Shown: positions 31,088 through 51,600 of the stretch, piece by piece
Layout of the letters: each line of letters opens with the position of its first letter
Position numbering within the stretch: position 1 is the first letter of the stretch
Origin: Mycobacterium vicinigordonae
Lineage (GTDB): Bacteria > Actinomycetota > Actinomycetes > Mycobacteriales > Mycobacteriaceae
Assembly (NCBI RefSeq): GCF_013466425.1
Contig: NZ_CP059165.1
Location: 6,200,001 to 6,264,000 of the forward strand
DNA: 64,000 nucleotides
Direction of reading: 5' to 3'
Program-made: the position numbers and the translations under genes
Notes under the pieces: generated by a model
Database searches by the model: none
What the model was told of the DNA's origin: nothing
The model's input: the letters and a program-made list of their open reading frames with translations, nothing else

Positions 31088-31185
31088 CCCCGAATCACTC
31101 CGTTCATCGAGTCCAGTACGGCCTGGCAATCCTGGGAGCAGTGTAGACGTACCGGGGGCGTGAACGGGGCTATTTCGGGCTGGGC

Positions 31186-31409
31186 TCAAGCGGTTGGTTC
31201 GGGCTGCCAGAGCCGCCGAATTGCGACCCCAATGGGCAATATCGAGTCCGCGTCATCGCGGTCAGCAGCGTCGCGGCTGACGTCACGGCCGGGACGAATA
31301 TCCATGCCCTCGGCGTGCTTCCAGAAATCTTTCGGCTCGGCGAGACTTTCGGTGGTAAGCGGGGTATTGGCGAATTCGATCTCGCGGCGGTGCTGGCGCG
31401 GTCCCGCCG
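31186..31409 (-). pseudogene. 5'-truncated coding remnant of unknown family
   Basis: One minus-strand frame stays open for about 75 codons and reads like real protein: TESLAEPKDFWKHAEGMDIR, then VSRDAADRDDADSILPIGVA and IRRLWQPEPTA before a TGA at 31188-31186. The frame opens just after a TAA at about 31410 and has no usable start until an internal ATG 40 codons from the end. This is what the C-terminal end of a gene looks like after its front was lost. I do not recognise the family. A short gene from the internal ATG is possible but less likely. Confidence 0.45.
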
Positions 31410-34871: not shown

Positions 34872-34882
34872 AGTCGGCTTCG

Positions 34883-36864: not shown

Positions 36865-38706
36865 TCACAGTCTTATCGGGACATGCTTTTCCGCGCACGC
36901 GTCGACTACCGCGGTGACCACGTCCGGTGCCAGTAGCGTCTGCAGGTCCTCGACTGTGACAGACCCTTTCGCGCTGCGGTTCTGTGCGGCCACCCGCGAA
37001 TCCCGCAGCCGCTCAGCCCGTTCCACCACATTGCGGGCAAACCGACCGTTGTGCATGACGTCGATGCCGTGCGTGCCGTCCGGCGCGTGGTAGTCGCCCA
37101 GCACTGTGCAGGCCGTTTTCAAAGCCGCCGCAGCCTCGGGTGCGATCACAGTTGCCCGCGGCTCGCCGTAGCGCACCGCGATCTCCACTAGCTCATCCGG
37201 TGTGTAGGACTCGAAGCGAAGCTTGCGGTTGAAGCGGCCGGCCAGACCCGGGTTCACAGTAAGGAATTCGTCGACTTCCTTCTCGTATCCCGCACCGATG
37301 AAACAGAAGTCGAATCGGTGCACCTCCAGCGCGACCAGCAACTGGTTGACCGCCTCCATGCCGATCATGTCGGGACGCCCGTCTTGGTGCCTCTCCACCA
37401 GCGAGTAGAACTCGTCCATAAACAGAATGCGCCCCAAGGACCGATTGATAAGTTCGTTGGTCTTCGGTCCCGACGCCCCGATGTGCTCGCCGCAGAAGTC
37501 CGCCCGTTTGACCTCGACGATCTCGGGATGCCGCACGATTCCGAGCCCGGCGTAGATCTTGCCCAAAGCTGCTGCGGTGGTGGTCTTCCCGGTCCCGGGT
37601 GGTCCCACCAACAGCATGTGGTTGGTTTGATTGGCAACCGGCAGGCCCGCCGCCAGCCGCAGGGCGCGCACCTCGATCTGGTCTTCGAGCTCGGCTACCG
37701 CCCGTTTGACGTCGGCCAGCCCGACCTGGTTGTCCAGCAGCGCACGTCCTTGCGCCAGCAGCTCATTGCGCCGCTCCTCGTTTTCAGCCTCGGAGCGCTG
37801 CGTGGCCGAACGCTGAGTGTTGACGTCCCATTTATCTGTCCGGGTGGCGATGGCATCCTCGTCGGTGATCACCAGCTGCAGACCGGAGTCGGCCAGCGCC
37901 TGCTTGGCCGCGTCCATCAGCGCGCCGTTGATGGTCGCCCGGGACAGCCACACCTGGGCCTGGTGTTCATCGCCGAGATGGCGGTGTGCCATTCCGCGGA
38001 TGTAGGCCAAATCCGCTGCGATCAAGGGGAACTCGATGGCCTCGATGGCCGCCGCGGTCAACTGACGGCGTGCCTGGGTCGCGCTGGGATGGTGGGCTCG
38101 CACTTCAACCCGGTCAGCCCATTCCAGGGCGACCCGCGCCTGCCCGAGGTGGGCCGCAGCGTGCGCGGCCAGCGCACAGGTCGCCGCCGTGACAGCCGAC
38201 ATGATGATGGCCTGCGGGGGCAGGATCGCGGCCGCGACCGAGATCACGTCCGGCCAGCGCTGCGTGGCGAACATCAGGTAGGCCTCCAGATGCTGCTGCC
38301 ACTGGTGGTTCTCCCAGGCATCCAGCAGGGCCGGATCCGCGAGCAGCGTCTCGGCTTTCCCGTACTGCCGGTGGTCAATGAGAGCGCCCGCCAACGCCAG
38401 CCCGGCATGTGAGGCCTCGGTCACCGAGATCGACAGGTAAGGACCCGCCTTGACGGGCGCCGAGAGCCGCACACCGATCCGGTTCGTCTCCCGATGCAAC
38501 CGCGACCCGTAGGCATACAGCTGCTGCACCGTCGGCAGGGACTCGTCGCCGGCCGCGATCAGCCCCAGCCACGCGTCGGCCATCGACGGGTCAATCTCGG
38601 TGGCCTCTCGAAATCGCGTCCTGGCCCCCGCTATGTCGTCATGCAGCAACGCCATGGCCTGGTCGAACCGTTTGCGGGCGGCGCCCACGCTGGTGCTGCT
38701 GGTCAT
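36865..38706 (-). CDS. eccA2: EccA2, AAA+ ATPase of ESX-2
   Basis: A 613-residue protein matching Mtb EccA2 (Rv3884c, 619 residues). The N-terminal helical (TPR-like) part spans about 1-290, and the CbbX-type AAA+ domain has Walker A GPPGTGKT at 368-375, Walker B ILFMDEFYSL and the arginine-finger region NPGLAGRFNRKLRF. Expected role: cytosolic ATPase that frees cargo from EspG2. ATG 38706 overlaps the eccE2 stop in ATGA. In H37Rv its 3' end faces mycP1 directly; here a foreign-looking segment separates them. Confidence 0.93.
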   Translation of the reverse strand: MTSSTSVGAARKRFDQAMALLHDDIAGARTRFREATEIDPSMADAWLGLIAAGDESLPTVQQLYAYGSRLHRETNRIGVRLSAPVKAGPYLSISVTEASHAGLALAGALIDHRQYGKAETLLADPALLDAWENHQWQQHLEAYLMFATQRWPDVISVAAAILPPQAIIMSAVTAATCALAAHAAAHLGQARVALEWADRVEVRAHHPSATQARRQLTAAAIEAIEFPLIAADLAYIRGMAHRHLGDEHQAQVWLSRATINGALMDAAKQALADSGLQLVITDEDAIATRTDKWDVNTQRSATQRSEAENEERRNELLAQGRALLDNQVGLADVKRAVAELEDQIEVRALRLAAGLPVANQTNHMLLVGPPGTGKTTTAAALGKIYAGLGIVRHPEIVEVKRADFCGEHIGASGPKTNELINRSLGRILFMDEFYSLVERHQDGRPDMIGMEAVNQLLVALEVHRFDFCFIGAGYEKEVDEFLTVNPGLAGRFNRKLRFESYTPDELVEIAVRYGEPRATVIAPEAAAALKTACTVLGDYHAPDGTHGIDVMHNGRFARNVVERAERLRDSRVAAQNRSAKGSVTVEDLQTLLAPDVVTAVVDACAEKHVPIRL

Positions 38707-40241
38707 GAAACGTCCACCGGTTCTAGGTCACCGCTGCGCAAGCTCACCGGCTCGGTTGATACATAACGGTTTTCAGCCCGGAACAGCTCGATTTCGACGG
38801 TGTGTGACTGCCCGGCGGCGAGCACCTCGACGGTCCCCGCGCCGTTCTGAGTGATGAGGACACTGGCAAAACCGCGGTAGGCGACGTCTCGCTCCCCCAC
38901 GGATATCACCGTGTTCGGGCGCGGTGTGGGAGTAACCGTCCCATCCACCACACTGACGGTGGTTCCGGCGATCGGCTTCGCGGCGTCGGTCACCGCGACG
39001 TCGGGCATCCGAACACTGGCCCAGCGCTCAAGATTTCGGGTGTGCACCGTAATCCGTTCCCCGGTACCCGCCAATCGCACCACGATCCGTTTGGCCAGCG
39101 CGTCGTCGGCGGCGATATGTACGCGACTGAACTCACCCGGATCGTCCAGCGGCAACATCAGCCGATTACCAGCTCCGACCTTGCCCAGCAGCACGCCGGA
39201 CGGGCCGACCGCAACCACTACCGATTCGGTCAGCAAGCCGCGACGGACGCCGCGCAACTGCGGCAGCGGCCCACACAAACTGGCGACGACGGCGTCCGCC
39301 TGCTCTCCGGGCAACGTTTGCAGTAGCGTGCTCGGCGGTGCGGTTGGTGGTTGGGCACTTCGCACCGTCAGCGTCGCCGCGACACCCCCGTCTGCGAAAA
39401 GGGTTATGTTCTGCGTGATTCCGTCAACCCGCAGCATCCAAGCCTGTGCCAGCGCCGCGGAGGTGATGCCTTCGGGCCGGTACCAATAGGTGGTCAGCCA
39501 ACCTCCGTCCGCGCGCACACAGCGCCACCGGCGGTTCCCGACGTGCAGCGCCGACCGCCCCAGCCTGCGCTCCAATTCGACGATGTCGGTGGCGGTTGCC
39601 ACCTTGGCCCGGACTCCTTGTTGGCGCATGGCCGCGCTGATCCGCTGCGCGACCGCCAACGTCGCAGTGCCGATCGACGAACGACATTGCAACGCCTCGA
39701 TATTGGCCAGGACGGCTACCCGCACGATCACCCACGTCTCACGCTGCCCGGCGTACGGCGGAGTGCCCAGTAGCGTGTCGTATACCCGGGGATAGTCTCC
39801 CGTGCTTCGACGTCGAGCACCGGTGCTAACCACACTCAACGAGTCGACGTGCAGGCCCAGGCTTTGCCGCATCAGCGGCTGCAAATCACGGATATCGAAG
39901 GCATTTTCGGTGTGGGTCGAGGTGGACCCGGTGAACAGGGACGCGGCATGCGGCTTGCCGAGGAGTTGCACCGCAGCAACCGCGACACCGTCTTGGAACC
40001 GCACGCCACCGCCGGCGCGGTCGTTGGCGACGGTGCGCGGATCGGCCAAGGTGATGGGTCGGTGTCGCCGGAGCCACAACAGTAGCCACCCCCATCCGGT
40101 CCGGCCGCGCCACCGCGGGACACAGACCGCGGTCGCGATCACCGAACACGCTGTGGCACAGACGTATCCGCTGGCAGCGAGTCCGGCCAGGAATGCCGCG
40201 AAGACGGCGGCAATAATGCTCAACCTGGTGGCGGCCGTCAT
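38703..40241 (-). CDS. eccE2: EccE2, ESX-2 membrane complex component
   Basis: A 512-residue protein matching Mtb EccE2 (Rv3885c, about 537 residues). Two hydrophobic helices lie within the first 45 residues (LSIIAAVFAAFLAGLAASG and the following YVCATACSVIATAVCV), then a large cytosolic domain. It overlaps mycP2 and eccA2 by four bases each, so the whole set is one operon. Confidence 0.9.
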   Translation of the reverse strand: MTAATRLSIIAAVFAAFLAGLAASGYVCATACSVIATAVCVPRWRGRTGWGWLLLWLRRHRPITLADPRTVANDRAGGGVRFQDGVAVAAVQLLGKPHAASLFTGSTSTHTENAFDIRDLQPLMRQSLGLHVDSLSVVSTGARRRSTGDYPRVYDTLLGTPPYAGQRETWVIVRVAVLANIEALQCRSSIGTATLAVAQRISAAMRQQGVRAKVATATDIVELERRLGRSALHVGNRRWRCVRADGGWLTTYWYRPEGITSAALAQAWMLRVDGITQNITLFADGGVAATLTVRSAQPPTAPPSTLLQTLPGEQADAVVASLCGPLPQLRGVRRGLLTESVVVAVGPSGVLLGKVGAGNRLMLPLDDPGEFSRVHIAADDALAKRIVVRLAGTGERITVHTRNLERWASVRMPDVAVTDAAKPIAGTTVSVVDGTVTPTPRPNTVISVGERDVAYRGFASVLITQNGAGTVEVLAAGQSHTVEIELFRAENRYVSTEPVSLRSGDLEPVDVS

Positions 40242-41869
40242 CGTTCCCGCCGCGCTCGGGCGACCAGGGAGGCCAGGGTGGTGGCCAGCACGACGACCCC
40301 GGCGAAAATCAGTGCGATGTTGCGGGCGCGGTGGTCCGGCGGGGGCGGCGGCGCGGCGGGTGTGATCACCCGACTGTGCGCCCCGGGCGCAAGCCGGTCC
40401 CCTACCGGCACATCGAATGTCAGCGCGGCCACTGGATCCACGACGCCGTAACCGACTTGGTTGTCCGTGCCGCGCGGCGGGTTGTGCGCAGTCTGCAAGA
40501 TACGGTTGATGATCTGATGCGCCGAGAGCTCGGGGTACTTGGCTCGCACCAACGCGGCGACGCCGCTAACATAGGCAGCCGAGAAGCTGGTGCCCCAGAT
40601 GGGCATGTTCTTCTCGCCCGGATGAATCGGCGGGTAGGCGTTGACCGGCCCACCCGTTTGCGGGGACAACCCCATGATGCCTACGCCCGGGGCCGCGGCA
40701 GCCACCCACGGCCCAGCCAGGCTCTTGGCGATGGGTAATCCCGTATTATCCACCGCCCCAACCGATAAGACGTAGTCGGAGAACCAGGAGGGCGACGAGA
40801 CTGTCTTCACCTGATGCCAGTCCCGCGGGTCGGCGGCGCTCAACGGGTCGAAAGACGGATTCTGCGCGCAACCGTCTTCGCTGTCATTACCGGCTGCGGC
40901 GACGATCACCGCGTCCTTGACGGTGGCTGCGTACCAGACGGCGGCGCCGATGGAGGCCTGGTCGAGCGGATCGGCGGCCGCAACGCAGGATGTCACGCTG
41001 ATATTTATCACCTTGGCGCCCATGTTGGCGGCGTGCACGATGGCGGTGGCGAGCGACGCGAGCGAGCCGGCCTTCTTGCGGACCTCCGAATCGCCAGGGC
41101 CGGGGTTGACTGGTTCGAAGGCCCGGGACGACTGACGGATGGAGATGATCACGGCGTGCGGTGCCACGCCGACCACGCCGTCGGGTGCCCCGGGCGCCGG
41201 ACCGGGCACCTCCGGGACATCGGGGCTGGCGGGATCACCCGGCCCGTTGGAAGGTTCGTCGGGCGGCGGCGCCGCGGGTGGTGGCGGTTTCGTTTCGGTG
41301 ACCGTGACCGGGGTAGGTGGTGGCGGGGGTGCTGGTGGGGGTGGGGTCCCGCCGGGCGGGGGTGGCCCGGAGTCGACGGGCACCGGGCCGGCCGGCGGTG
41401 GAAAGGCGGGGGCGCTCGGCATCGGAGCCGGCATCGGACTGCCTTGCGGCGCAGCGCCTATCACCGACGCCACGATCGTGCCGTGCGCATCACAATCCAT
41501 CAACCCGTCACCACTCATGATGTAGTCGCCCCCGGCCACCACCCGTAGCCGAGGGCTGGGGTTGATCCCGGTGTCAATGACCGCTACCGGAACCCCGTTG
41601 CCGGTCGAGTACTGCCATGCCTTGCTGATATTGAGCATGGTGAAACCGGGCGCGGTGGCGGCCACGTTCGGATCGGCGACAGTGATGGTGCGGGCGCACA
41701 TATTGCTTTGCCGCATCGGTTGGTCCGGGCCCGGCTTTCCGTCCGGCGGTACCCGGCTGGGATCGATGGTGGGTTGCGGAATCGCCAGTGCCGCCGGCAC
41801 ATTAGCTGACAGGGCAACTGCCGACACTACCAGCGCCACTACCAGAAGCCGTCCGCCAATGGCCTTCAT
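40238..41869 (-). CDS. mycP2: Mycosin-2, ESX-2 subtilisin-like membrane protease
   Basis: A 543-residue mycosin matching Mtb MycP2 (Rv3886c, about 550 residues). A signal peptide covers about 1-29; the catalytic triad is Asp99 (VAVIDTG), His129 (DCDAHGT) and Ser428 (WGTSFSA) with oxyanion Asn328. Residues about 140-230 are a proline-rich loop inserted between the His and the rest of the protease core. A C-terminal membrane helix lies at about 516-536. ATG 41869 overlaps the eccD2 stop in ATGA. The protease looks intact although the locus lacks EccB2 and EccC2. Confidence 0.93.
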   Translation of the reverse strand: MKAIGGRLLVVALVVSAVALSANVPAALAIPQPTIDPSRVPPDGKPGPDQPMRQSNMCARTITVADPNVAATAPGFTMLNISKAWQYSTGNGVPVAVIDTGINPSPRLRVVAGGDYIMSGDGLMDCDAHGTIVASVIGAAPQGSPMPAPMPSAPAFPPPAGPVPVDSGPPPPGGTPPPPAPPPPPTPVTVTETKPPPPAAPPPDEPSNGPGDPASPDVPEVPGPAPGAPDGVVGVAPHAVIISIRQSSRAFEPVNPGPGDSEVRKKAGSLASLATAIVHAANMGAKVINISVTSCVAAADPLDQASIGAAVWYAATVKDAVIVAAAGNDSEDGCAQNPSFDPLSAADPRDWHQVKTVSSPSWFSDYVLSVGAVDNTGLPIAKSLAGPWVAAAAPGVGIMGLSPQTGGPVNAYPPIHPGEKNMPIWGTSFSAAYVSGVAALVRAKYPELSAHQIINRILQTAHNPPRGTDNQVGYGVVDPVAALTFDVPVGDRLAPGAHSRVITPAAPPPPPDHRARNIALIFAGVVVLATTLASLVARARRER

Positions 41870-43368
41870 CTCATCCGCACCCAGGTGAACAATCCGCCTA
41901 TCCAGGCGGCCAGTGGCAACGCCGCGATAATGGCTGCGATCTCCACCCATTCGGCGGCCATGCGCACCAGCGGCGTGAACCTCGTGATCGGCACCAGCAG
42001 CGACGCCAACAGCCCCGCGCCGGCGAAAGCTGTCAAAGCTACCGCAGCACACAGCAACGCCATCTCGTTTGAAGATGCTTGGTGCACAACATATTTGATG
42101 ACACCGGTGCACGCGGCAACCGCGGCGCCACTCACCAGTGCAACCGCCTGGCGCTTGTCGGCGAAGGCCCGCCCCCGGCTGATGAAAATCACCACGAACA
42201 GCCCACCCAGCACCGCGGCCGCGGTGCCACGGTCGCGCCCGGGCATCAGGGTGGCCCACACCGCAACCGGCAGCGCCACAGCGGCGCCCACGCAAATGCC
42301 GGTCAACACGTTGTTAGCGCGGATGGCCACCGCGGCGATCTGCGCACCGCGCGGCGTGGTGTCGGGAATCGCATCGTCCGCGCCGCCCTCAGTGCCGTCG
42401 CTCACCGGAGAGACGGCGTCAACCGGCATGCCGTCGGCGCGCCTGAACAGATCGCGGCCGGTGATCGAACCGAAGTACGGCGGCCGGATGCGGGCGGCCC
42501 AGAGCGCGAAGGTCGGGGCCAATGTCAAAACGAGCAGCAGGATTACCAGGGTGCACATTCCCAGCCACTGGGCCGGGATCGGCCACCACATCCGTGGCGC
42601 AGCCACGCTCACCCCAAGGGCACACATCGTGACCACCGCCGCCGCCGCATCGATATGGCGCCGAGTCACCGTCGCGAGGCCACACGTCAGCACCGCGGCC
42701 GCCAATGCGGCGATGAAGACGTGTGCCGAACCCATCTTTCCTGGCGCACTGGCGCCCAGGCCCACCGCGACAAGGGGCACGGCCAGCCAGCCGAACCCGT
42801 CGAGCATGTCCGTCCGGCGGGGCCACCACTGCCACGCCGCGAGTGCGCCGCCCGCGACCACGAGTCCCGCTCCGCCCGTGACCAGGCCGGGCAACAGCGA
42901 GTCGGTTGCGATACGTTGTCGCACAGCCAATCCCAGGATCGTGACAACGACGAATGCGACGATTGCCAGTGCGGTGTGTGCGGCTGTCTGGACGGTGACC
43001 GGTTCGAAGAGCTTTTTGCCTATCCGCGCCAGGCCGGTGGACAGCGACTCGTATTGGGGCTCGAACGATTCGCCCTCGGTGGCGGGTACCAGGGTAAGGG
43101 TGGCGCCGTCTTCCACACCGAGTTCGTCGAGGGTCTTGGTGATGTCGAGGCGCACCCCGTTGGCTTTATGTAGTTCGTATCCGACACCGGTTTCGAGCCC
43201 GGGCAGGCCACGGCGCTTGAGTTCGTCGTGCACCAGTTCGACGACGTTGTCGACGAACACCTCGATCGGTACGGAGGCCGGGTACACCTGCGAGAGCAGG
43301 TGTTCGCCGCAGACAACAGCTACCGCGCAACGGGCAGGAAACGAGACCTTGCCAACCAGAGAGGTCAT
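41866..43368 (-). CDS. eccD2: EccD2, multi-spanning ESX-2 membrane component
   Basis: A 500-residue protein matching Mtb EccD2 (Rv3887c, 509 residues). An N-terminal ubiquitin-like domain (CAVAVVCGEHLLSQVYPASV) of about 100 residues is followed by about eleven membrane helices from residue 125 on. It starts directly after the stop of the MinD-like ATPase and overlaps mycP2 by four bases. Confidence 0.92.
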   Translation of the reverse strand: MTSLVGKVSFPARCAVAVVCGEHLLSQVYPASVPIEVFVDNVVELVHDELKRRGLPGLETGVGYELHKANGVRLDITKTLDELGVEDGATLTLVPATEGESFEPQYESLSTGLARIGKKLFEPVTVQTAAHTALAIVAFVVVTILGLAVRQRIATDSLLPGLVTGGAGLVVAGGALAAWQWWPRRTDMLDGFGWLAVPLVAVGLGASAPGKMGSAHVFIAALAAAVLTCGLATVTRRHIDAAAAVVTMCALGVSVAAPRMWWPIPAQWLGMCTLVILLLVLTLAPTFALWAARIRPPYFGSITGRDLFRRADGMPVDAVSPVSDGTEGGADDAIPDTTPRGAQIAAVAIRANNVLTGICVGAAVALPVAVWATLMPGRDRGTAAAVLGGLFVVIFISRGRAFADKRQAVALVSGAAVAACTGVIKYVVHQASSNEMALLCAAVALTAFAGAGLLASLLVPITRFTPLVRMAAEWVEIAAIIAALPLAAWIGGLFTWVRMR

Positions 43369-44394
43369 TTACCGGGGCCTGTCGGCGTCCGGAATGTACT
43401 TGTCGGCCAGGGCCGCGACGATCTCGAACAACTGCAGACGCGACTTCTTCTTCAGTTCGTGGCGGGTGTCGATGATCCCGCCCTTGGCGAGGTACGGGTC
43501 ATACGGCATGAACTCGACCGTTGCGCCGGATTGCTTGAAACGCTCGGTGAGGTACGCGCGGGCGTCGGGGTCGTACTTGTCGCGACTGTCGTTGAGGATC
43601 ACGGTGCTTCGCGACACCAGTTCGTGGTATCCCATCGACCGCAACAGATCGATAGCGCGGGTCACCGGCAGGGAGGTGTCAGCGGTCAGACCTGAGACGA
43701 ACACCAGCGCGTCACAGGCGTCGAGCACCGCCTTCATCACCGGGTGCTCGATGTCGTCGGAGGTGTCCACCACGATGACGGTGTGGGTGCGGCGCAGCCG
43801 CGACAGCACTCCGGTGAACATCGATGGAACCAGCGGTCGCGGCTGGTCGGATGCTCGGTTACCCGCCAGCACATCGAGACCGATGCTGTTCTGCCCCAAG
43901 TGCTCTCGGATATCCGCGTAGCCTTGGACGTCGGTGTCGTTAAGTACCGCCGAGTAGTCCCCCGGCGGGGACTCGTCGATCCGTCCGGCCAGTGTGCCGA
44001 ATCCAGGAGCGGCGTCGATCGCAACGACGTTGTCGGGTCGGCATTCTCGGAAGACGCCCCCGATGCACGCGGTCATCGTGGTCTTTCCGACGCCACCTTT
44101 ACCCGAAACCACCCCGATCACATACTGTTTGCGGATATGGCGCCTGATCCGGTCTTGAAGTTCGCGATGGTGTCGTTCGGCCGGTGATTCGCCGAGGTTG
44201 ACCGTCTTGAATGACAAGTTGTACAGGAACTTTCGCCAACCCGACCCGGGTGGGATCTTCCGCGGCGCGACCATGTCGGAAATCCGCAGCGTGCCCGATA
44301 CGGATTCCTGGTGCGCGACACGCGCAGCGGGGACGTCCCGTTGCGTGATTCCCGCCTGTTCGACATGAGGGGCAGCATTCCACGGGTTCGTCAC
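43369..44394 (-). CDS. MinD/ParA-like ATPase of the ESX-2 locus (Rv3888c-like)
   Basis: A 341-residue cytosolic ATPase with deviant Walker A KGGVGKT at 99-105 and the core VVAIDAAPGFGTLAGRID. It matches Rv3888c and belongs to the same group as EspI and the Rv3860-like protein, but without their long proline tract. A role in regulating or energising ESX-2 is inferred from position only. The start is GTG 44394. It is adjacent to eccD2 with no gap. Confidence 0.88.
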   Translation of the reverse strand: MTNPWNAAPHVEQAGITQRDVPAARVAHQESVSGTLRISDMVAPRKIPPGSGWRKFLYNLSFKTVNLGESPAERHHRELQDRIRRHIRKQYVIGVVSGKGGVGKTTMTACIGGVFRECRPDNVVAIDAAPGFGTLAGRIDESPPGDYSAVLNDTDVQGYADIREHLGQNSIGLDVLAGNRASDQPRPLVPSMFTGVLSRLRRTHTVIVVDTSDDIEHPVMKAVLDACDALVFVSGLTADTSLPVTRAIDLLRSMGYHELVSRSTVILNDSRDKYDPDARAYLTERFKQSGATVEFMPYDPYLAKGGIIDTRHELKKKSRLQLFEIVAALADKYIPDADRPR

Positions 44395-44430
44395 GACGCA
44401 ACTTCCAACACTTCGATCGACACCTCTCGA

Positions 44431-45264
44431 CTACACAACTTTCCGGTACGAAAACCATTCATGTTCGGCGGGCAGACGGCGCAGCATGTGGGTGATCGCG
44501 CTGGTGATGTTGCCCGTAGTTCCGGGCGCGACGATCATCCACCGTCGGCCGGCGGAGTTGACGTGCTCGGCGACCAACCGCCCCTCGGGGGTGTCGATGA
44601 CAGTCACCGCACCGGCTTCGACGTGTGTTCGCGACGATTTGCCACCGGCAACTCCGGATTGCACGGCGACGATCGAGGCTTGAGCCGACCGGCTCGGGTC
44701 GGTAGCCAGTGTCAGCAACCGCGTCTGGTCGCACTCGAGCCCGTGACCACGGATGAACGCGTCCAGTGCCTCCCGACCGACCGCCGCCGCACGCAGGCTA
44801 TCCGCGTCGAGGGTGACGGGCCGCAGTGCAGCCGGCGCCTGTTGCCCACACCACCGCTCGATCTGCGCGCGGATCACCGAGCTTGCCGATCCCTCCGCGG
44901 TGGACGTGCCCGCGCCGCTGATCCGGATCAAGTCAGCGCAGCGTTCCACGGCGACCCACCACTGGGCGAATCGCGCGAGCAGTGCCCGCGCCGGTTCCGC
45001 GTCGCCCGGTGCGCGCATCTGGACGAAAAGCCCGATGTCTCGCCGCGACAGGACCGTCAGCCATTCCAGCACGGTGCCGTCGACTGTGCCGGATTCGTCG
45101 AGCACCCCGGCCGCGCACAATTCGGCGGTGACGGGGTGTTCGAGCGCCAGGCGCCTGGGTTCCACACTCGGCAGCAACGGCCGCAGCCCCAACTCGGGGG
45201 CCACGGTCTCGATGCCGGTGAGGACCTGCAGGGCCCACAGCCCGTCGACGGTGGTGGTTAACAC
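44431..45264 (-). CDS. espG2: EspG2, ESX-2 PE/PPE chaperone
   Basis: A 277-residue EspG-family protein matching Mtb EspG2 (Rv3889c, 276 residues), with the start MLTTTVDGLWALQVLTGIE and the end PAEHEWFSYRKVV. I chose GTG 45264, which has CGAGGAAC upstream and aligns with Mtb; ATG 45279 would add five residues. It should bind PPE69 in Mtb. The PE36-PPE69 pair is not present beside it, so its local client is gone. Confidence 0.88.
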   Translation of the reverse strand: MLTTTVDGLWALQVLTGIETVAPELGLRPLLPSVEPRRLALEHPVTAELCAAGVLDESGTVDGTVLEWLTVLSRRDIGLFVQMRAPGDAEPARALLARFAQWWVAVERCADLIRISGAGTSTAEGSASSVIRAQIERWCGQQAPAALRPVTLDADSLRAAAVGREALDAFIRGHGLECDQTRLLTLATDPSRSAQASIVAVQSGVAGGKSSRTHVEAGAVTVIDTPEGRLVAEHVNSAGRRWMIVAPGTTGNITSAITHMLRRLPAEHEWFSYRKVV

Positions 45265-45326
45265 GGTGTTCCTCGACATAGACCCGGGGCGCACGCATTG
45301 CATGCGCCCCGGGCCGATCGCATTGG

Positions 45327-45617
45327 CTAGATAAAGAGGTTGCCCATCTGGGCGTCGGTGGCCTGTGCCATTTCGTCGACGTTGTGCACGGTGTGAGCGT
45401 GCCGGCTGACGGTCTGAATCAGGTCTTCCAGTCCGTGCAGCATCTGCTGCTGTGCATCGAAAAATGCGGTGGCGCCATGGCCTTGAAAGAAGTCACCGAG
45501 TGCTTGCGTGAGGTTGAGGACGTCGCTGTGAATTTCCATCAGCTGTGCGGCCTGCGCACCGACCTCGCCTGCGAATCCGACGACGGCGCCGTGGTTATAG
45601 ACGATGTGATCTGCCAT
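45327..45617 (-). CDS. esxC: EsxC, WXG100-family protein of ESX-2
   Basis: A 96-residue EsxA-type protein (MADHIVYNHGAVVGFAGEVG) matching Mtb EsxC (Rv3890c). The hairpin turn reads FFQGHGATAF, with His in place of the usual W-x-G Trp neighbourhood, as in Mtb EsxC (EFFAGHGAQGF). It pairs with EsxD. It sits 48 bases downstream of esxD and 62 bases upstream of espG2. Confidence 0.9.
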   Translation of the reverse strand: MADHIVYNHGAVVGFAGEVGAQAAQLMEIHSDVLNLTQALGDFFQGHGATAFFDAQQQMLHGLEDLIQTVSRHAHTVHNVDEMAQATDAQMGNLFI

Positions 45618-45665
45618 GAACGTTCCTAACTTGTGGTCTGCGGAGTAGGGGAACTGCGATTCGGG

Positions 45666-45992
45666 CTAGACCGCCTGAGTCCCCCCGCTGAACACGCCGT
45701 TGAGGTTGTGCGCCGCATCGGCCTCGTGGTTTTCCATCAGCACCGCAGCCCGGCCCAGCCCGTGTGCAAGCCGTTGGCCCCCGGTCATGATCTGTTGCAG
45801 GTCGTGATGGATCTGGCCGGCGGTGTTGAGCGAGGTGTTGCCCGCGTCCCCTGCCCATCCCGTCGCATTGATGATGTTCTCGTGCCCGCTCAGATACTGA
45901 TTGGCGATCGCGGCGGCTTCCTGCAATCGGGCTTCGATCCGTTGCTGCGTACTGCGCAGCAACTCTGGAGTGACAACTGTTGCGTTTGCCAT
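45666..45992 (-). CDS. esxD: EsxD, WXG100-family partner of EsxC
   Basis: A 108-residue protein matching Mtb EsxD (Rv3891c, 107 residues). The W-x-G turn is in ATGWAGDAGN; the C-terminal HEADAAHNLNGVF fits the EsxB-like partner with the export signal side. GAGGGAGA precedes ATG 45992. It is now the first gene of the truncated ESX-2 operon; in Mtb PPE69, PE36, eccC2 and eccB2 lie upstream. Confidence 0.9.
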   Translation of the reverse strand: MANATVVTPELLRSTQQRIEARLQEAAAIANQYLSGHENIINATGWAGDAGNTSLNTAGQIHHDLQQIMTGGQRLAHGLGRAAVLMENHEADAAHNLNGVFSGGTQAV

Positions 45993-46241
45993 ATTAGAAT
46001 CTCCCTCAATTATTTTGCTCTCGCCGAGGCCGGATCTGCGTAAAGCTAGATCAGCCGCCCCCAGCTGTCACTTCACCCACCTTGGTCGCTGCACATGGGT
46101 GGAACAGGCTGTTTAGTGGACACCAGAATTTGGCGCGTGTCAAACGCTGGACAGCGGCCCGGCTTGGGGATAGTTACCGCGCAGGACCTTCAGCGCATGG
46201 AGAATGGTCGCAGAAAATTAGCTGTGCTTATTGGCAAGGCT
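45993..46241 (-). promoter_or_regulatory. Leader of the truncated ESX-2 operon and likely rearrangement junction
   Basis: 249 bases between esxD and the Rv3906c-like gene, where Mtb carries about fourteen genes. TTTGACA on the minus strand (46143-46138 for TTGACA) is a consensus -35, but no -10 at good spacing was found; TAGCTT nearer to esxD is a possible -10. No repeat, IS end or tRNA was seen at the junction. Confidence 0.4.
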
Positions 46242-46751
46242 TCATGCGGCCCCCGCTCCGTCGGCTATTCCGTCGCCGTCGGAATCGAAGAGTCGAACAT
46301 CCCAGCGCCCGTCGCCGTCGGTGTCCACGTAGCCGGTGACGCCGTCGGGACCCGTGCACACCACCTGATCGGCAACCCCGTCGCCGTCGAGGTCGGCCAG
46401 CCGATCGTCCGGTTGACCCTGCCCGTCGAAGTCGACCAGCGGGCCGCCGGAATGTTCCACACCGTCCAGACCGAACCACCGCAGCTGCCCGCCACGATCG
46501 ACAGCGACCCGCCACGTCCCGGATCCATCGTCGACGAAGTAGGTTTCCGGGGCGCCGTCGTTGTCTGCGTCGAGCACGGCGTGGTCGGCGACTCCGTCGT
46601 GGTCGAGGTCGACCAGGGCGTCGTCGCGGAGGCCGTCACCATCCAGGTCCAGCCCGACGGCGTCGAACGCACCGTCGCCGTCGAGGTCGAGATCAGCGGC
46701 ACGATTCCACATCGACGCGGTGCCGTCGTCGCCGCCGAGGCAGTACTCCAT
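46242..46751 (-). CDS. Rv3906c-like protein with Asp-rich calcium-binding-type repeats
   Basis: A 169-residue protein made largely of eight short repeats of the type DLDGDGVAD (for example DLDLDGDG, GLDLDGDGLRD, VDTDGDGRWD, FDSDGDGIAD), each resembling the DxDxDG loop of EF-hands, dockerins and thrombospondin type-3 repeats. It most likely binds calcium. There is no signal peptide or membrane helix. Length and position next to pcnA match Rv3906c. I chose ATG 46751, which gives MEYCLGGDDGTASMWN; longer starts run into pcnA. Some databases label homologues pullulanase-like, but nothing catalytic is visible here. Confidence 0.8.
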   Translation of the reverse strand: MEYCLGGDDGTASMWNRAADLDLDGDGAFDAVGLDLDGDGLRDDALVDLDHDGVADHAVLDADNDGAPETYFVDDGSGTWRVAVDRGGQLRWFGLDGVEHSGGPLVDFDGQGQPDDRLADLDGDGVADQVVCTGPDGVTGYVDTDGDGRWDVRLFDSDGDGIADGAGAA

Positions 46752-46795
46752 GCCCAGTTTGGACGCGGCGGCGCGGCGCCAGGTTCCGATGATTG

Positions 46796-48235
46796 TCAGT
46801 CGCCTCGCGTCTTCCACCACGCCAGCAGTTCTGCGGTGGCCTCCTCGGTGGACAGCGGACCGCGGTCCAGACGCAGTTCCTTGAGGAATCGCCACGCCTC
46901 GCCCACCTGTGGGCCGGCCGGAATGTCGAGCAGCCGCATGATCTCGTTGCCGTCCAGATCCGGCCGCACCCGGTCCAGGTCTTCCTGAGCCGCCAGTTCC
47001 GCGATCCGATGCTCTAGGCGGTCATAAGACGCGCGCAGCCGCGCCGCGCGGCGTTTGTTGCGGGTGGTGCAGTCCGCGCGCACCAGCTTGTGCAATCGCG
47101 GCAGCAGCGGTCCAGCATCAGTGACGTAGCGGCGCACCGCCGAGTCGGTCCACTTGCCTTCGCCGTAGCCGTGAAACCGCAGGTGCAGATACACCAGCTG
47201 GGATACATCGTCCACCATCTGCTTGGAGTACTTCAACGCCCGCATCCGCTTGCGGACCATCTTGGCGCCGACCACCTCGTGGTGGTGGAAGCTCACTCCG
47301 CCGTTGGGTTCGTGGCGGCGGGTCGCGGGTTTGCCGATGTCATGCAGCAGTGCAGCCCAGCGCAGCACCAGGTCGGGACCCTGGTCTTCGAGCTCGATCG
47401 CTTGGCGCAGCACGGTCAGTGAGTGCTGGTAGACATCCTTGTGCTGGTGGTGCTCGTCGATCGCCATCTGCATGCCGCCGATCTCGGGCAGTACCACCTC
47501 GCCCATCCCGGATTGCACCAGCAGGTCGATGCCGGCCACCGGGTGCGCACCGAGCATCATCTTGTCGAGCTCGGCCGCCACCCGTTCGACGCTGATCCGC
47601 GCCAGCTGCGGCGCCATTTCCTCGAGCGCCGTCCGCACCCGCGGCGCGACGGTGAAGCCGAGCTGGGAGACGAATCGGGCAGCGCGCAGCATTCGCAGCG
47701 GGTCGTCGCCGAAGGACACCTCCGGGGCCGCCGGCGTGTCGAGCACCCCGGCGCGTAGTGCCGCCAGCCCACCCAGCGGGTCTAGGAATTCCCCCGCCCC
47801 GGCCGAGGTGACGCGCACCGCCATCGCGTTGACCGTGAAGTCGCGGCGCACCAGGTCGTCGTCGAGCCGATCCCCGAACCGCACTTGCGGATTGCGCGAC
47901 ACCTGGTCGTAGGTGTCGGCGCGGAAGGTGGTGATCTCTAAGCGGTGCTCGCCCTTGCCGACGCCGACAGTGCCGTACTCGATGCCGGTGTCCCACAGCG
48001 CATCGGCCAGCGGCCGCACGACCTTCTGGATCTGTTCGGGGCGTGCGTCGGTAGTGAAGTCCAGGTCTGGGCTGAGCCGGCCCAGCAGCGCGTCTCGCAC
48101 CGAGCCGCCGACCAGGTACAACTCGTGTCCGGCGGCCGCGAATGCGGCGCCCAGTTCGCCGAGCACTCCGGCGTGCCGGTGCAACGCGACCGCAGCTGCG
48201 GTGAGCAGATCGGCATCCTGGACGGGTTCAACCAC
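46796..48235 (-). CDS. pcnA: CCA tRNA nucleotidyltransferase / poly(A) polymerase family (PcnA)
   Basis: A 479-residue class II nucleotidyltransferase, the same length as Mtb PcnA (Rv3907c, 480). The head domain has LVGGSVRDALLG and the metal-binding DLDFTTDA, followed by the RRDFT motif, the B/A-recognition region RMLRAARF, and a C-terminal HD domain (LLHDIGKPATR, HHHEVVG). The enzyme adds or repairs CCA ends on tRNA. GTG 48235 is chosen because it aligns with the Mtb start; a TTG at 48256 is possible. Divergent from mutT4. Confidence 0.94.
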   Translation of the reverse strand: MVEPVQDADLLTAAAVALHRHAGVLGELGAAFAAAGHELYLVGGSVRDALLGRLSPDLDFTTDARPEQIQKVVRPLADALWDTGIEYGTVGVGKGEHRLEITTFRADTYDQVSRNPQVRFGDRLDDDLVRRDFTVNAMAVRVTSAGAGEFLDPLGGLAALRAGVLDTPAAPEVSFGDDPLRMLRAARFVSQLGFTVAPRVRTALEEMAPQLARISVERVAAELDKMMLGAHPVAGIDLLVQSGMGEVVLPEIGGMQMAIDEHHQHKDVYQHSLTVLRQAIELEDQGPDLVLRWAALLHDIGKPATRRHEPNGGVSFHHHEVVGAKMVRKRMRALKYSKQMVDDVSQLVYLHLRFHGYGEGKWTDSAVRRYVTDAGPLLPRLHKLVRADCTTRNKRRAARLRASYDRLEHRIAELAAQEDLDRVRPDLDGNEIMRLLDIPAGPQVGEAWRFLKELRLDRGPLSTEEATAELLAWWKTRGD

Positions 48236-48438
48236 GTTCGGTGAGCCTAATAGCAATCGTCCGGTGACTCAGCCCACGTCCAGCCGCATTCACACCTGCG
48301 CAGCGAGCGGCAGGTTCTGCGGCAGAGCGCCGAGCACTGTCGCCGGGGGGTTCCTGTGGCGCAAGCGGCCCACGCGACGAAAGTGATCAAAGGTACCGGC
48401 GGACGGCGAGTGCGTCCGGAAGACCCGCCCCAGCCAGC

Positions 48439-48451
48439 TAATATCGCTTGA
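48439..48451 (+). promoter_or_regulatory. -10 box giving a leaderless mutT4 transcript
   Basis: TAATAT (48439-48444) is a TANNNT -10 element; seven bases separate it from ATG 48452, and there is no Shine-Dalgarno. Transcription should start at or next to the A of the start codon. Confidence 0.6.
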
Positions 48452-49186
48452 ATGTCGGACGGCGAGCAAGCCAAACCACGTCGACGCCGGGGCCGGCGTC
48501 GCGGTCGTGGCGCGGGACGTTCGGCGGAGCCGAAGACGAACGGTCAACCGGTCGCCGACACCGCACCAACCCCGGCCACCGCGGCCAAGCGCCGGGTACG
48601 GCGCGGCCCCGACCGCATGCGGACCGTGCACGAGACGTCGGCCGGCGGCCTGGTCATCGACGGAATCGACGGTCCGCGTGACGAACAGGTCGCCGCGCTG
48701 ATCGGCCGGGTGGACCGGCGTGGCAGGATGCTCTGGTCGCTGCCCAAGGGGCATATCGAACTCGGCGAGACGGCCGAGCAGACGGCCATTCGCGAAGTCG
48801 CCGAGGAGACGGGTATCCGCGGCAGTGTGCTGGCCGCACTGGGACGCATCGACTACTGGTTCGTCACCGACGGCCGGCGGGTGCACAAGACCGTGCACCA
48901 CTATTTGATGCGCTTTCTTGGTGGAGAACTCTCCGACGAAGATCTGGAGGTCGCCGAAGTGGCGTGGGTGCCGATCCACGAGCTGCCGTCACGGCTGGCC
49001 TACGCCGACGAACGCAAACTGGCCGAGGTAGCCGACGAACTGATTGACAAGCTGCAGACCGACGGCGAAGAAGCGCTGCCCCCCCTGCCGCCGAGCGCGC
49101 CGCGACGACGCCCCCAGACCCATTCGCGCACCCGACACGCCAATGACTCCGCATCCCGGAAGAACGGTAACGGGCAGGGGCCGTGA
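48452..49186 (+). CDS. mutT4: Nudix hydrolase MutT4
   Basis: A 244-residue Nudix protein matching Mtb MutT4 (Rv3908). The Nudix box [20 protein letters not shown] plus TGI at 100-122 is complete. The first 50 residues are Arg-rich ([11 protein letters not shown]), and the C-terminal 40 are basic and flexible. MutT-type enzymes clear oxidised nucleotides; Mtb MutT4 has weak dATP/8-oxo activity reported and its main substrate is open. The gene overlaps the next one by four bases (GTGA) and heads the mutT4-Rv3909-murJ operon. Confidence 0.93.
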
Positions 49187-51600
49187 CGGGGCCGCGACTT
49201 CGACGGGCTAGGGCCGAGGGCGGGACCAAGGGGGCGCGTCTCGCCACAGTGATCGGCATCATGGCCGGCTTCGCGATGATGCTGGCGGGCAATCCGCCGA
49301 ACGCGAACGCCGGCGAACCCGCCGCCACTCCCTTCGTGCAGGTGCGGATCGATCAAGTGACGCCCGACGTCGTCACCACCACCAGCGACCCCGTCGTCAC
49401 CGTCAGCGGAATGGTGACCAACATCGGCGACCGCCCCGTGCACGACGTGATGGTGCGGCTCGAGCATGCCGGCGGCGTCACGTCGTCCACGGCGCTGCGC
49501 ACCTCGCTGGACGGTGGCACCGACCAGTACGAGCCGGCCGCCGAGTTCCTGACCGTCTCCCCCGAACTGCAGCGCGGACAGCAGGCCGGGTTCATCTTGT
49601 CCGCTCCGCTGCGCTCGCTGACCAAGCAATCGCTGGCCATCGACCAGCCCGGTATCTATCCGATGCTGGTCAACGTCAACGGAACCCCCGACTACGGCGC
49701 ACCGGCCCGCCTGGACAACGCCCGCTTCCTGCTACCCGTGGTGGGTGTGCCACCCGACAAGGCGGCCGGCATCGACGCGGCAGTGGCCCCGGAAACCCGC
49801 AAGCCGGTGTGGATGACGATGCTTTGGCCGCTGGCCGACCGGCCCCGGCTGGCGCCCGGTGTTCCCGGCGGCACCATCCCGGTGCGCCTGGTCGACGACG
49901 AGCTGGCCAACTCGCTGGCCAACGGCGGGCGCCTGGACACTCTGCTGTCCGCGGCCGAGCTGGCCACCAGCCGCGACGTCGACCCCGACGGTGCGGTCGG
50001 CCGGGCGCTATGCCTGGCCATCGATCCCGACCTGCTCGTCACCGTCAACGCGATGACCGCTGGCTACGTGGTGTCCAACTCCGCTGACGGCCCCGCACAA
50101 TTGCCGGGGGCCCCGACCCACCCCGGTACCGGCCAATCTGCCGCCAACCTGTGGTTGAACCGGTTACGCGCCCTGGCGCACCGCACGTGTGTGGTCCCGC
50201 TGCCCTACGCCCAGGCCGATCTGGACGCCCTGCAGCGAGTCAACGATCCGGGGCTCAACACCGCGGCCACCGCAGCGACATCCGACATCGTCGACCGCAT
50301 TCTGGACGTCGCCTCGGTGCGCAACACCGCGCTGCTGTCGGACGGCCCGCTGACCAGCCGGGGCGTGACCCTGCTGGACGCCAACGACAGCACGGTCGCG
50401 GTCGCGGCCGCTGAAGCACCCGGCCAGAGCGCCAACACCACCTCCGGCAGCGCTGATATCTCGCCCCGCAGGCTCTCGACGCGGGTAGTGACCGCGCCGT
50501 TTGACCCGGCCATCGGCGCTGCGCTAGCCGCCGCCGGGACCAGCCCCATCGTGCCCACCTATCTGGACTCGTCGCTGTCGGTACACGTCAGCCACGACTC
50601 GGCCACCGCCCGCCGCCAGGACGCGCTGGGTGCGATGCTGTGGCGCGGCCTCTCACCGGATGCCGCACCGCGCACCCAGATCCTGCTGCCACCGGCGTCG
50701 TGGACATTGCAGGGCGACGATGCGCAGTCCATCCTGACCGCGCTGGCCACCGCCATCCACTCCGGGCTTGCGGTGCCGCGCCCGCTGCCCGCGGTGATCG
50801 CGGACGCGGCGGCACATACCGAGCTGCCCAGCCCCCCGGGCGCCTACCCGTCGGTGCGGGGCAGGTTCAGCGACGAGATCACCGGCCAGGTCGCCGACCA
50901 GGTCGGCCGGGTATGGAAACTGACCTCGGCACTGATGACCGATGAACGCACCGGGCTGACCGGTGCGCAGTACACCGCGCCACTGCGCGAGGACATGCTG
51001 CGTGCCCTGAGCCAGTCGGTGCCGCCGGACACCCGCAACGGGTTGGCGCAGCAGCGGCTATCGGTGGTCGGTACCACCGTCAACGACTTCTTCCGTTCGG
51101 TGACGATCGTCAACCCGGGCGGTTCCTACACCCTGGCCACCGAGCACAGCCCGTTGCCGCTGGCCCTGCACAACGGCCTGGCCGTACCGATCCGGGTTCG
51201 GCTGCAGGTCAACGCACCACCCGGGATGACAGTGTCCGACGTCGGCGAAATCGAGCTACCGCCCGGATACCTGCCGCTGCGAGTGCCGATCGAAGTCAAC
51301 TTCACCCAGCGCGTCGCCATCGACGTCGGGTTACGCACACCGGACGGCACGGCACTTGGTGAGCCGGTGCGGTTGTCGGTCCATTCCAACGCCTACGGCA
51401 AGGTGCTATTCGCGATCACGCTGACGGCAGCGGCGGTGCTGGTACTGCTGGCCGGGCGGCGGTTGTGGCACCGCTTCCGGGGCCAGCCCGACCCCGCCGA
51501 CCTCGATCGCCCCGATCCCCCCGCGGCGGCGGGCCATGGACGGGCACCCGAGCAGCCTCGCGCCGTCACGGGTCGGGTTCACGAAGAGCATCGGGTATGA
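49183..51600 (+). CDS. Secreted or membrane-anchored protein of unknown function (Rv3909-like, DUF6049)
   Basis: An 805-residue protein matching Rv3909 (802 residues). An N-terminal signal or anchor helix (about 20-40, [17 protein letters not shown]) is followed by about 700 periplasmic residues with Ig-like ends, a C-terminal membrane helix (about 745-765) and a short Pro/Asp-rich cytosolic tail. The start GTG 49183 overlaps the mutT4 stop, and the stop overlaps the murJ start (ATGA). Its fixed place before murJ suggests a role in the cell envelope; no catalytic motif was seen. Confidence 0.88.

What the first reader, a model, noticed from the sequence alone, without database searches (positions are those of the whole stretch)
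45993..46241. ESX-2 locus lacks its first half: no EccB2, EccC2, PE36, PPE69, and no CpnT/EsxEF
In H37Rv the run upstream of esxD is PPE69, PE36, eccC2, eccB2, then several genes including the CpnT necrotising toxin, its antidote and esxF-esxE, ending at Rv3906c and pcnA. Here 249 bases join esxD to the Rv3906c-like gene. The retained genes (eccA2, eccE2, mycP2, eccD2, MinD-like ATPase, espG2, esxC, esxD) are all intact with correct catalytic residues and tight overlaps. A type VII system without the EccB and EccC core should not export by itself, yet the rest has not decayed. Either the loss is very recent, EccB/EccC come from another ESX system, or the remaining proteins have another use. 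I infer deletion, but ancestral absence is not excluded.
Basis: partly seen in the sequence, partly recalled or inferred. Interest (0 to 1): 0.75.

Follow-up and report, generated by a model that had tools for sequence, protein, structure and literature searches.

The report
ESX-2 operon split by oriC inversion
The "missing" half of this secretion system was not deleted: an old flip of the DNA around the replication origin cut the operon in two, and the other half, now damaged in this genome, lies about 64,000 bases away on the far side of the origin.

Summary
In detail: 249 bp separate esxD from the Rv3906c-like gene, and eccA2-esxD are intact. The deletion reading does not. The front half (DUF5631, DUF2710, eccB2, eccC2, PE, PPE) lies at contig 41,995-50,127, across oriC. 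Split genomes differ from relatives with a contiguous ESX-2 by one inversion spanning oriC (70.6 kb here), with ends at PPE|esxD and MDMPI|r3906. The 24 split genomes tested form one group in trees of both halves (bootstrap 100), and the trees agree, so the halves were inherited together. An exactly conserved promoter-like element before esxD, present in contiguous relatives too, would let the back half survive alone. In this genome a 648-bp deletion removed the eccB2 3' end and the eccC2 start, and EccC2 shows excess amino-acid change, so ESX-2 is probably off here, by a different lesion from the one proposed. Three M. gordonae-group genomes really lack eccB2-eccC2 yet keep an intact back half; because that deletion recurs at one breakpoint, I cannot show that selection on it postdates the loss. 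The split is in print for relatives; my searches listed no paper on the inversion.

The parts
45993..46241 (.). Left junction of the oriC-spanning inversion: esxD | Rv3906c-like gene
   Evidence: In contiguous relatives the Rv3906c-like gene adjoins MDMPI and esxD adjoins PPE; in split genomes esxD adjoins the Rv3906c-like gene, with a similar gap in 23 of 23 other split genomes measured
46066..46075 (-). TGAAGTGACA, exactly conserved element upstream of esxD; its last six bases GTGACA look like a -35 box
   Evidence: Invariant in 25 aligned loci of split and M. gordonae-group genomes (26 given, one without usable hit); after removing duplicates exact in 37 of 38 split, 28 of 28 contiguous, 4 of 7 unclear and 0 of 5 second-type loci; one copy in 277,766 bp of this genome read
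46043..46048 (-). Candidate -10 box TAGCTT, 17 nt downstream of GTGACA
   Evidence: Read from the sequence; GTGACA-N16..18-TANNNT in 37 of 38 split and 13 of 28 contiguous loci. The tool's sigma-70 scan did not list it
45666..45992 (-). esxD, first gene of the back half
   Evidence: PF06013/PF10824, 108 aa
45327..45617 (-). esxC
   Evidence: PF06013, 96 aa
44431..45303 (-). espG2
   Evidence: PF14011
43369..44394 (-). MinD-like ATPase (EspI-type) of ESX-2
   Evidence: PF01656, KGGVGKT
41866..43368 (-). eccD2
   Evidence: TIGR03920
40238..42295 (-). mycP2
   Evidence: TIGR03921; Asp, His, Ser motifs present
38703..40241 (-). eccE2
   Evidence: TIGR03923
36865..38706 (-). eccA2, last gene of the back half
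   Evidence: TIGR03922
46242..46895 (-). Rv3906c-like gene ('r3906'), inside the inverted segment next to the breakpoint
   Evidence: Adjoins MDMPI in 11 of 11 non-inverted genomes mapped there: G202, G336, G298, G278, G012, G296, G016, G022, G166, G085, G009
46796..48256 (-). pcnA, marker for the orientation of the origin segment
   Evidence: TIGR02692; census against leuS

Best explanation
The locus is the back half (esxD-esxC-espG2-minD-eccD2-mycP2-eccE2-eccA2) of an ESX-2 operon that was cut in two by one inversion of the segment holding oriC. Before the inversion the whole operon lay right of oriC (...DUF5631-DUF2710-eccB2-eccC2-PE-PPE-esxD...eccA2), and left of oriC MDMPI adjoined the Rv3906c-like gene. 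The inversion broke between PPE and esxD and between MDMPI and the Rv3906c-like gene. The front half now ends at MDMPI right of oriC, the back half starts at the Rv3906c-like gene left of it, both still transcribed away from oriC. It was survivable because the break fell upstream of a promoter that esxD already had (shown: a conserved element; inferred: that it is a promoter). The halves then descended together; in most split genomes examined both are intact, so they presumably still build one ESX-2 (inferred). In this genome a later 648-bp deletion took the 3' 40% of eccB2, its stop, and the start of eccC2, so ESX-2 secretion is probably lost or impaired here (inferred), while the back half is intact.
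For: Front half found: EccB (PF05108, positions 2-324 of 474), EccC, PE, PPE, DUF2710, DUF5631 at contig 41,995-50,127. Orthology: EccC2 84-95% in other split genomes, same gene order in contiguous ones. Reciprocal junctions: leuS-LpqN-DUF179-MFS-MDMPI|r3906-pcnA left of oriC in 6 of 6 contiguous relatives mapped there; upstream of the contiguous cluster the same neighbours as the front half has here, in G202, G403, G355 (fhaA to A39627), G298, G278 (A37771, A39627) and G012 (A39627). DnaA, DnaN, GyrB at the contig start. One event: split-versus-rest bipartition 100/100 in front and back trees of 44 taxa; 18 of 21 bipartitions shared among 24 split taxa, no disagreement with support >=95 on both sides. 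Census: leuS and pcnA opposite and far apart in 24 of 24 split genomes, same strand and <15 kb in 10 of 10 contiguous ones. Element before esxD. Lesion: EccB2 full length in 38 of 40 genomes with a hit, truncated in G000, interrupted in G266; 648 bp. EccC2 here: 17 v 3 private residues against sister G061, p=0.0026, four-fold sites 13 v 12; 14 v 2, p=0.004, with 12 outgroups.
Against: No secretion or transcript data. The direction of the inversion rests on outgroups. The two trees differ at some nodes (for example 83 v 79; 97 v 80). The G000 lesion is known from one assembly, without reads, and in the assembly of sister G061 the usual eccC2 start is not in frame with the body either, so the eccC2 start is uncertain in both. 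Inverted genomes with the second ESX-2 type lack eccB2-PPE at the right junction; I read this as later loss, but 'never had it' is not excluded. EccC2 is one gene of 18 tested (Bonferroni p about 0.05), and the back half leans the same way, 33 v 23, not significant. The -10 box is less general in contiguous loci (13 of 28). MDMPI was seen after PPE in 21 of 24 split genomes; in three (G007, G293, G232) the stretch held ended before any hit.
Confidence: 0.86

Rival explanations
1. The first half was deleted from this locus.
For: It is absent between esxD and pcnA.
Against: An orthologous front half exists across oriC, in the same neighbourhood in other split genomes; the junctions fit an inversion.
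Confidence: 0.02
2. The front half was acquired separately by lateral transfer after a loss (proposed in PMC6616192 for M. paragordonae).
For: M. gordonae-group genomes lack eccB2-eccC2, and the same deletion ends occur in genomes that are not nearest relatives, which would also fit losses and regains.
Against: Front and back trees agree; G244 (probably M. paragordonae) groups with G006 and then G063 in both, and front and back are equally diverged: G006-G244 dS 0.43 for eccC2 and 0.43 for the pooled back half, G006-G063 0.56 and 0.56. The gene-less genomes keep a PPE remnant at the site.
Confidence: 0.04
3. eccB2-PPE moved as a piece (transposition, as PMC4791881 words it for the M. avium complex) rather than by one inversion.
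For: Same gene content; from an H37Rv-like order two inversions would also place the front half on the right.
Against: The front half sits among the neighbours it has in contiguous relatives, and leuS-MDMPI changed side with it. A single inversion explains both joins.
Confidence: 0.08
4. ESX-2 is still functional in this genome, with a shortened EccB2 or another system's EccB.
For: EccC2 frame open for 1,350 codons with two Walker A and two Walker B motifs; back half intact.
Against: EccB2 stops matching at residue 299 of 498 and lacks a C-terminal part present in solved EccB chains; the eccC2 start is gone; EccC2 shows excess change.
Confidence: 0.15
5. The eccB2-eccC2 lesion is an assembly error.
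For: One assembly, no reads; the sister assembly also looks odd at the eccC2 start.
Against: EccC2 carries excess private residues in this genome, as expected after a real inactivation; the genome is one contig.
Confidence: 0.1

Closest known systems
Split ESX-2 of M. decipiens and M. riyadhense (PMC11237670, passages read)
   Same: ESX-2 genes in two genomic places (PCR-confirmed for M. decipiens); about 56% identity to the M. tuberculosis ESX-2
   Different: No mechanism in the passages seen; no broken eccB2 mentioned. A M. riyadhense EccB (P0007) is 82% identical to this one, so this genome is probably another species
Separated ESX-2 of M. paragordonae (PMC6616192, passages read)
   Same: Eight genes by ESX-1, the eccB2-eccC2 part far from it
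   Different: Authors infer lateral transfer; the trees here do not support that
Transposition of EccB2/EccC2 in the M. avium complex (PMC4791881, passages read)
   Same: The same two genes displaced
   Different: One sentence in the passages seen; no mechanism
'eccB and eccC absent' from M. riyadhense ESX-2 (PMC8356964, passages read)
   Different: Contradicted by the later report of a split
Symmetric inter-replichore translocation (PMC4889656, abstract and passages read)
   Same: Exchange across oriC that keeps distance from oriC and strand bias
   Different: Here one defined inversion that cuts a secretion operon

Membership tests
ESX-2 type VII secretion locus | eccA, eccE, mycP, eccD, espG, esx pair present | tested here: met
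   Pfam and NCBIfam matches
ESX-2 type VII secretion locus | eccB and eccC of the same system in the genome | tested here: met
   Contig 43,597-48,547, orthologous to contiguous ESX-2
ESX-2 type VII secretion locus | All core genes intact | tested here: not met
   eccB2 truncated and eccC2 start lost
ESX-2 type VII secretion locus | One operon | tested here: not met
   Two places about 64 kb apart across oriC
ESX-2 type VII secretion locus | Exports EsxC/EsxD | not testable with these tools
   No secretion data
Single oriC-spanning inversion | Both junctions reciprocal to two ancestral adjacencies | tested here: met
   PPE-esxD and MDMPI-r3906 in contiguous; esxD-r3906 and PPE-MDMPI in split genomes
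Single oriC-spanning inversion | oriC inside the segment | tested here: met
   DnaA, DnaN, GyrB at the start of this contig; other genomes assumed to start there
Single oriC-spanning inversion | Split genomes monophyletic | tested here: met
   100/100 in both trees, 24 of 44 taxa
Single oriC-spanning inversion | Recombining repeats at the ends | tested here: inconclusive
   Longest shared word between the two junctions of this genome is 7 bp; the event is old
Lateral acquisition of eccB2-eccC2 | Front-half history differs from back-half history | tested here: not met
CpnT/EsxEF operon | TNT domain gene in the genome | tested here: inconclusive
   No PF14021 match, no positive control

The most novel reading that the evidence does not exclude
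The esxD-eccA2 half is a module that can work without its own EccB2/EccC2, on another ESX system's membrane core or in a task other than export. It is intact in three M. gordonae-group genomes that have lost eccB2-eccC2 by a deletion with the same ends, and in the present genome with its broken eccB2.
Probability: 0.17. Interest if true: 0.82.

Novelty: new variant of a known kind. Interest (0 to 1): 0.6.

Why it matters
It replaces three published readings of these loci (absence, transposition, lateral gain) by one event that can be placed on the tree, and suggests that the ancestor of the main slow-growing mycobacteria already had a split ESX-2. It shows that a type VII operon can be cut in two and kept by a whole clade, plausibly because the break fell beside an existing promoter. 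It also supplies natural experiments: genomes that keep half an ESX system without its EccB and EccC.

Tried and rejected
Deletion, ancestral absence and lateral gain: rejected as above. My own earlier readings that failed: that two inversions were needed, and (note) that the back half had moved by itself; one search showed that one inversion suffices. One search gave pooled dN/dS 0.093, 0.078 and 0.084 for the pairs of G219, G136 and G412, against 0.090, 0.073 and 0.095 in three pairs that keep both halves and 0.073 for G000-G061. But one search shows that G412 is next to G006 (dS 0.05-0.11), which keeps the front half, and searches show the same deletion ends in all three with no direct repeat; so the loss happened at least twice at one place, a shared loss in G219 and G136 is not certain, and dN/dS may date from before it. 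I lowered the novel case from 0.30 to 0.17 for this. Co-occurrence is weaker than it looked: sets typed gave 173 of 396 genomes with both markers, 5 with MinD only, 16 with EccC only, 202 with neither, but G087, G335 and G396 have an ESX-2 that only lacks MinD, and G188 and G339 a collapsed eccC-eccA2 remnant. mycP2 was left out of trees and pooled dN/dS because its hits break at a long insert and gave meaningless ratios; other absurd ratios (DUF179, A35538) come from mis-extended frames, so one search used single hits. Repeats at the inversion ends: nothing above 7 bp. The built-in sigma-70 scan did not list the proposed promoter, and TGAAGTGACA with one mismatch is not rare in the window (2 found, 1.77 expected). 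The leuS/pcnA census covers 72 of 396 genomes, those found in both truncated listings on one contig; one of 11 rows labelled contiguous (G110) has its halves on different contigs and is not counted; G345 is odd. The output was cut in the middle, so part of its loci were seen only through later calls. Structure prediction was not used. That the second ESX-2 type is that of M. tuberculosis is recalled and fits the 56% figure of PMC11237670; I did not test it. PMC8115904, PMC8025370 and PMC6985099 were searched for passages; PMC8025370 reports eccC2 in hypermutated regions of clinical M. intracellulare, not followed.

Full report
What is there. The window is G000:C1:6200001-6264000 of a genome held as one contig of 6,266,765 bp. 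Minus-strand genes at 36865-45992 are eccA2, eccE2, mycP2, eccD2, a MinD-like ATPase, espG2, esxC and esxD, with catalytic motifs in EccA2, MinD and MycP2. 249 bp further come the Rv3906c-like ORF and pcnA.

Where the other half is. Six EccB matches and EccC loci beside them exist in the genome. One, at contig 41,995-50,127 on the plus strand, reads DUF5631/5632 protein, DUF2710, EccB, EccC, PE, PPE. The contig begins with dnaA, dnaN and gyrB, so this block lies right of oriC and the window's block left of it; eccB2 and esxD are about 64 kb apart. In relatives with a contiguous ESX-2 the same proteins occur in the order DUF5631-DUF2710-eccB-eccC-PE-PPE-esxD-esxC-espG2-minD-eccD2-mycP2-eccE2-eccA2, as far as the stretches reach (G009, G024, G012, and second-type G022, G017; G016 without a DUF5631/DUF2710 hit). 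The block is therefore the front half of the same ESX-2.

One inversion. In 21 of 24 split genomes PPE is followed by MDMPI, with insertions in a few, then MFS and DUF179; in three the stretch held ends first. esxD is preceded by the Rv3906c-like gene and pcnA. In six of six contiguous relatives mapped there (G202, G336, G298, G278, G012, G296; one or two contigs each) leuS-LpqN-DUF179-MFS-MDMPI lie left of oriC directly against the Rv3906c-like gene, while the whole ESX-2 lies right of oriC, after the neighbours that the front half has here (fhaA to A39627 in G202, and in G403 and G355; A37771 and A39627 in G298 and G278; A39627 in G012). Turning round the segment from the Rv3906c-like gene to PPE gives exactly the split order. 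In this genome the segment is 70.6 kb (6,246,242 to the contig end plus 1-50,127). The 249 bp are one inversion junction and the 50 bp after the PPE gene the other. Both halves are transcribed away from oriC. In nine genomes whose contig appears to start at dnaA (checked for G000 only) minD lies 22-26 kb from the contig end and eccC2 40-57 kb from its start.

How old, and how often. Trees of front (EccC+EccB) and back (MinD+EccD2+EccE2+EspG2) proteins of 44 genomes both separate the 24 split genomes from the rest with bootstrap 100. Among the 24, 18 of 21 bipartitions are the same, and no disagreement has support of 95 or more on both sides. The lateral-transfer reading of PMC6616192 (passages) is not supported. 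With leuS against pcnA as marker, in the 72 of 396 genomes that could be scored, 24 of 24 split genomes are inverted, 10 of 10 contiguous ones are not, 23 of 28 genomes with a second ESX-2 type (about 57-62% EccC2 identity) are inverted, and of 9 with no ESX-2 hit 5 are inverted, 3 are not and 1 is odd (labels and coordinates typed). After de-duplication 38 esxD loci are of the split and 28 of the contiguous kind. Inverted second-type genomes G042, G177, G238, G381 and the ESX-2-less G253 keep DUF5631-DUF2710 before MDMPI with eccB2-PPE missing; in four of the five these are neighbours, in G042 two PPE-like stretches lie between. I read this as an inversion older than the spread of the second type, with later loss of the first; absence from the start is not excluded.

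Why it was tolerated. The stretch before esxD carries TGAAGTGACA without a change in 25 aligned loci of split and M. gordonae-group genomes. After de-duplication it is exact in 37 of 38 split loci (the exception is the decayed M. tilburgii, L118), 28 of 28 contiguous, 4 of 7 unclear and 0 of 5 second-type loci; it occurs once in 277,766 bp read from this genome. With GTGACA as -35 and TANNNT 16-18 nt on, it looks like a promoter in 37 of 38 split and 13 of 28 contiguous loci. The built-in scan did not list it, and with one mismatch the 10-mer is no rarity, so the case rests on conservation. The back half therefore probably had its own promoter before the break. This is inference from sequence.

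What is broken in this genome. Of 43 loci searched with a full EccB2, three (back-half or partial stretches) had no hit; of the other 40, 38 are covered to residue 488 or beyond of 498, G266 is interrupted and G000 stops at residue 299. Against sister G061 the lesion is 648 bp and takes the rest of eccB2, its stop and the first codons of eccC2. In the assembly of G061 itself the usual eccC2 start is not in frame with the body, so that end of the gene is uncertain there too. Solved EccB chains cover the lost part (by sequence, for example 7b9f, 7np7). Where the outgroups present (at least three of eight) agree, EccC2 here has 17 private residues against 3 in G061 (p=0.0026), four-fold sites 13 against 12; EccB2+EccC2 together 20 against 4 (p=0.0015); other front genes 7 against 6; back half 33 against 23 (p=0.23); flanking controls 15 against 17. 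With twelve outgroups 14 against 2 (p=0.004). Relaxed selection on a recently broken front half would leave this, and it speaks against an assembly error.

Back halves without a core. M. gordonae-group genomes G219, G136 and G412 lack everything from near A35538 to residue 123 of PPE, eccB2-eccC2-PE included. No EccC2-like protein is left: at E<=1e-40 their EccC matches are 31-35% identical, one fragment in G136 40%, against 87-89% in G244, G063 and the MAG G413, which keep it. The back-half genes read are open and their pairwise dN/dS is ordinary. But G412 is almost the same genome as G006 (dS 0.05-0.11 in every region compared), which keeps the front half, while G219 and G136 form another branch; yet the deletion, 12.5 kb against G006, has the same ends in G412 and G136 to about a base and in G219 to a few, with no direct repeat, and the flanks of G412 match G006 up to the junction. 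The loss thus happened at least twice at one place, and I cannot say how long any of these back halves has been without its core. G219 also shows broken frames in neighbouring genes, so its assembly has errors.

Comparison with print. The split has been reported for M. paragordonae (PMC6616192), M. decipiens and M. riyadhense (PMC11237670) and in one sentence for the M. avium complex (PMC4791881); PMC8356964 reported eccB and eccC of ESX-2 as absent in M. riyadhense (passages read). PMC8593097 (passages) gives ESX-2 of M. tuberculosis a role in phagosome permeabilisation, shown with an eccC2 deletion. Three searches for an inversion or split in this context gave 0, 24 (10 listed) and 7 papers; no title or abstract shown describes the oriC inversion, but most were not opened, and subscription papers are not held.

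Judgement. The finding is real but misread. Shown: both halves exist, one inversion explains both joins, one clade in the trees, common descent, a conserved element, a lesion in this assembly. Inferred: promoter function, a joint machine in intact split species, loss of secretion here, any use of a back half without its core.

Noticed in passing
G219, G136, G412 (L179, L186, L187) against G006 (L038): A 12.5-kb deletion of the ESX-2 front half has the same ends in genomes that are not nearest relatives, without a direct repeat; G412's near-twin G006 keeps the region. The back halves are intact. Unexplained.
   Followed up: partly
L120 (G061), near 10560-10612: In the sister genome the usual eccC2 start is not in frame with the body: lesion or sequencing error.
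   Followed up: no
window 33126-36538: Two PknH-type Ser/Thr kinases (54% alike) lie between ESX-1 and eccA2; relatives turn up beside both inversion junctions in other genomes (for example L040, L133, L150, L152).
   Followed up: partly
window 40238-42295: MycP2 has 685 residues against 484 for the mycosin at 29735-31189; it carries a long extra stretch at which hits from other genomes break.
   Followed up: no
G000:C1:4424285-4447376 (L029, L026): A sixth EccB/EccC cluster whose EccC is nearest the ESX-4-like one (46%), with a 2,099-aa ORF and a 93-aa ORF (no Pfam match) next door.
   Followed up: no
L156 / L114 (M. montefiorense, G266): The front half, with eccB in two pieces and a stop in eccC, follows directly after eccA2: a second rearrangement or an assembly join.
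   Followed up: no
L204, L205 (G188, G339): In two genomes a truncated eccC2 (residues 1-839) runs into the 3' part of eccA2: the same collapse of the cluster.
   Followed up: partly
L201, L202, L203 (G087, G335, G396): Otherwise full contiguous ESX-2 loci lack the MinD-like gene, so it is dispensable.
   Followed up: partly
L225, L227, L229, L231 (G177, G238, G253, G381): DUF5631-DUF2710 adjoins MDMPI right of oriC in inverted genomes without first-type eccB2-eccC2, like a scar of the lost front half.
   Followed up: partly
L061, L062 (M. numidiamassiliense, G260): Both ESX-2 halves occur twice on one contig as an inverted duplicate, probably an assembly artefact.
   Followed up: no
L111: A contig titled Bifidobacterium breve MAG carries a mycobacterial ESX-2 back half: probably misbinned.
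   Followed up: no
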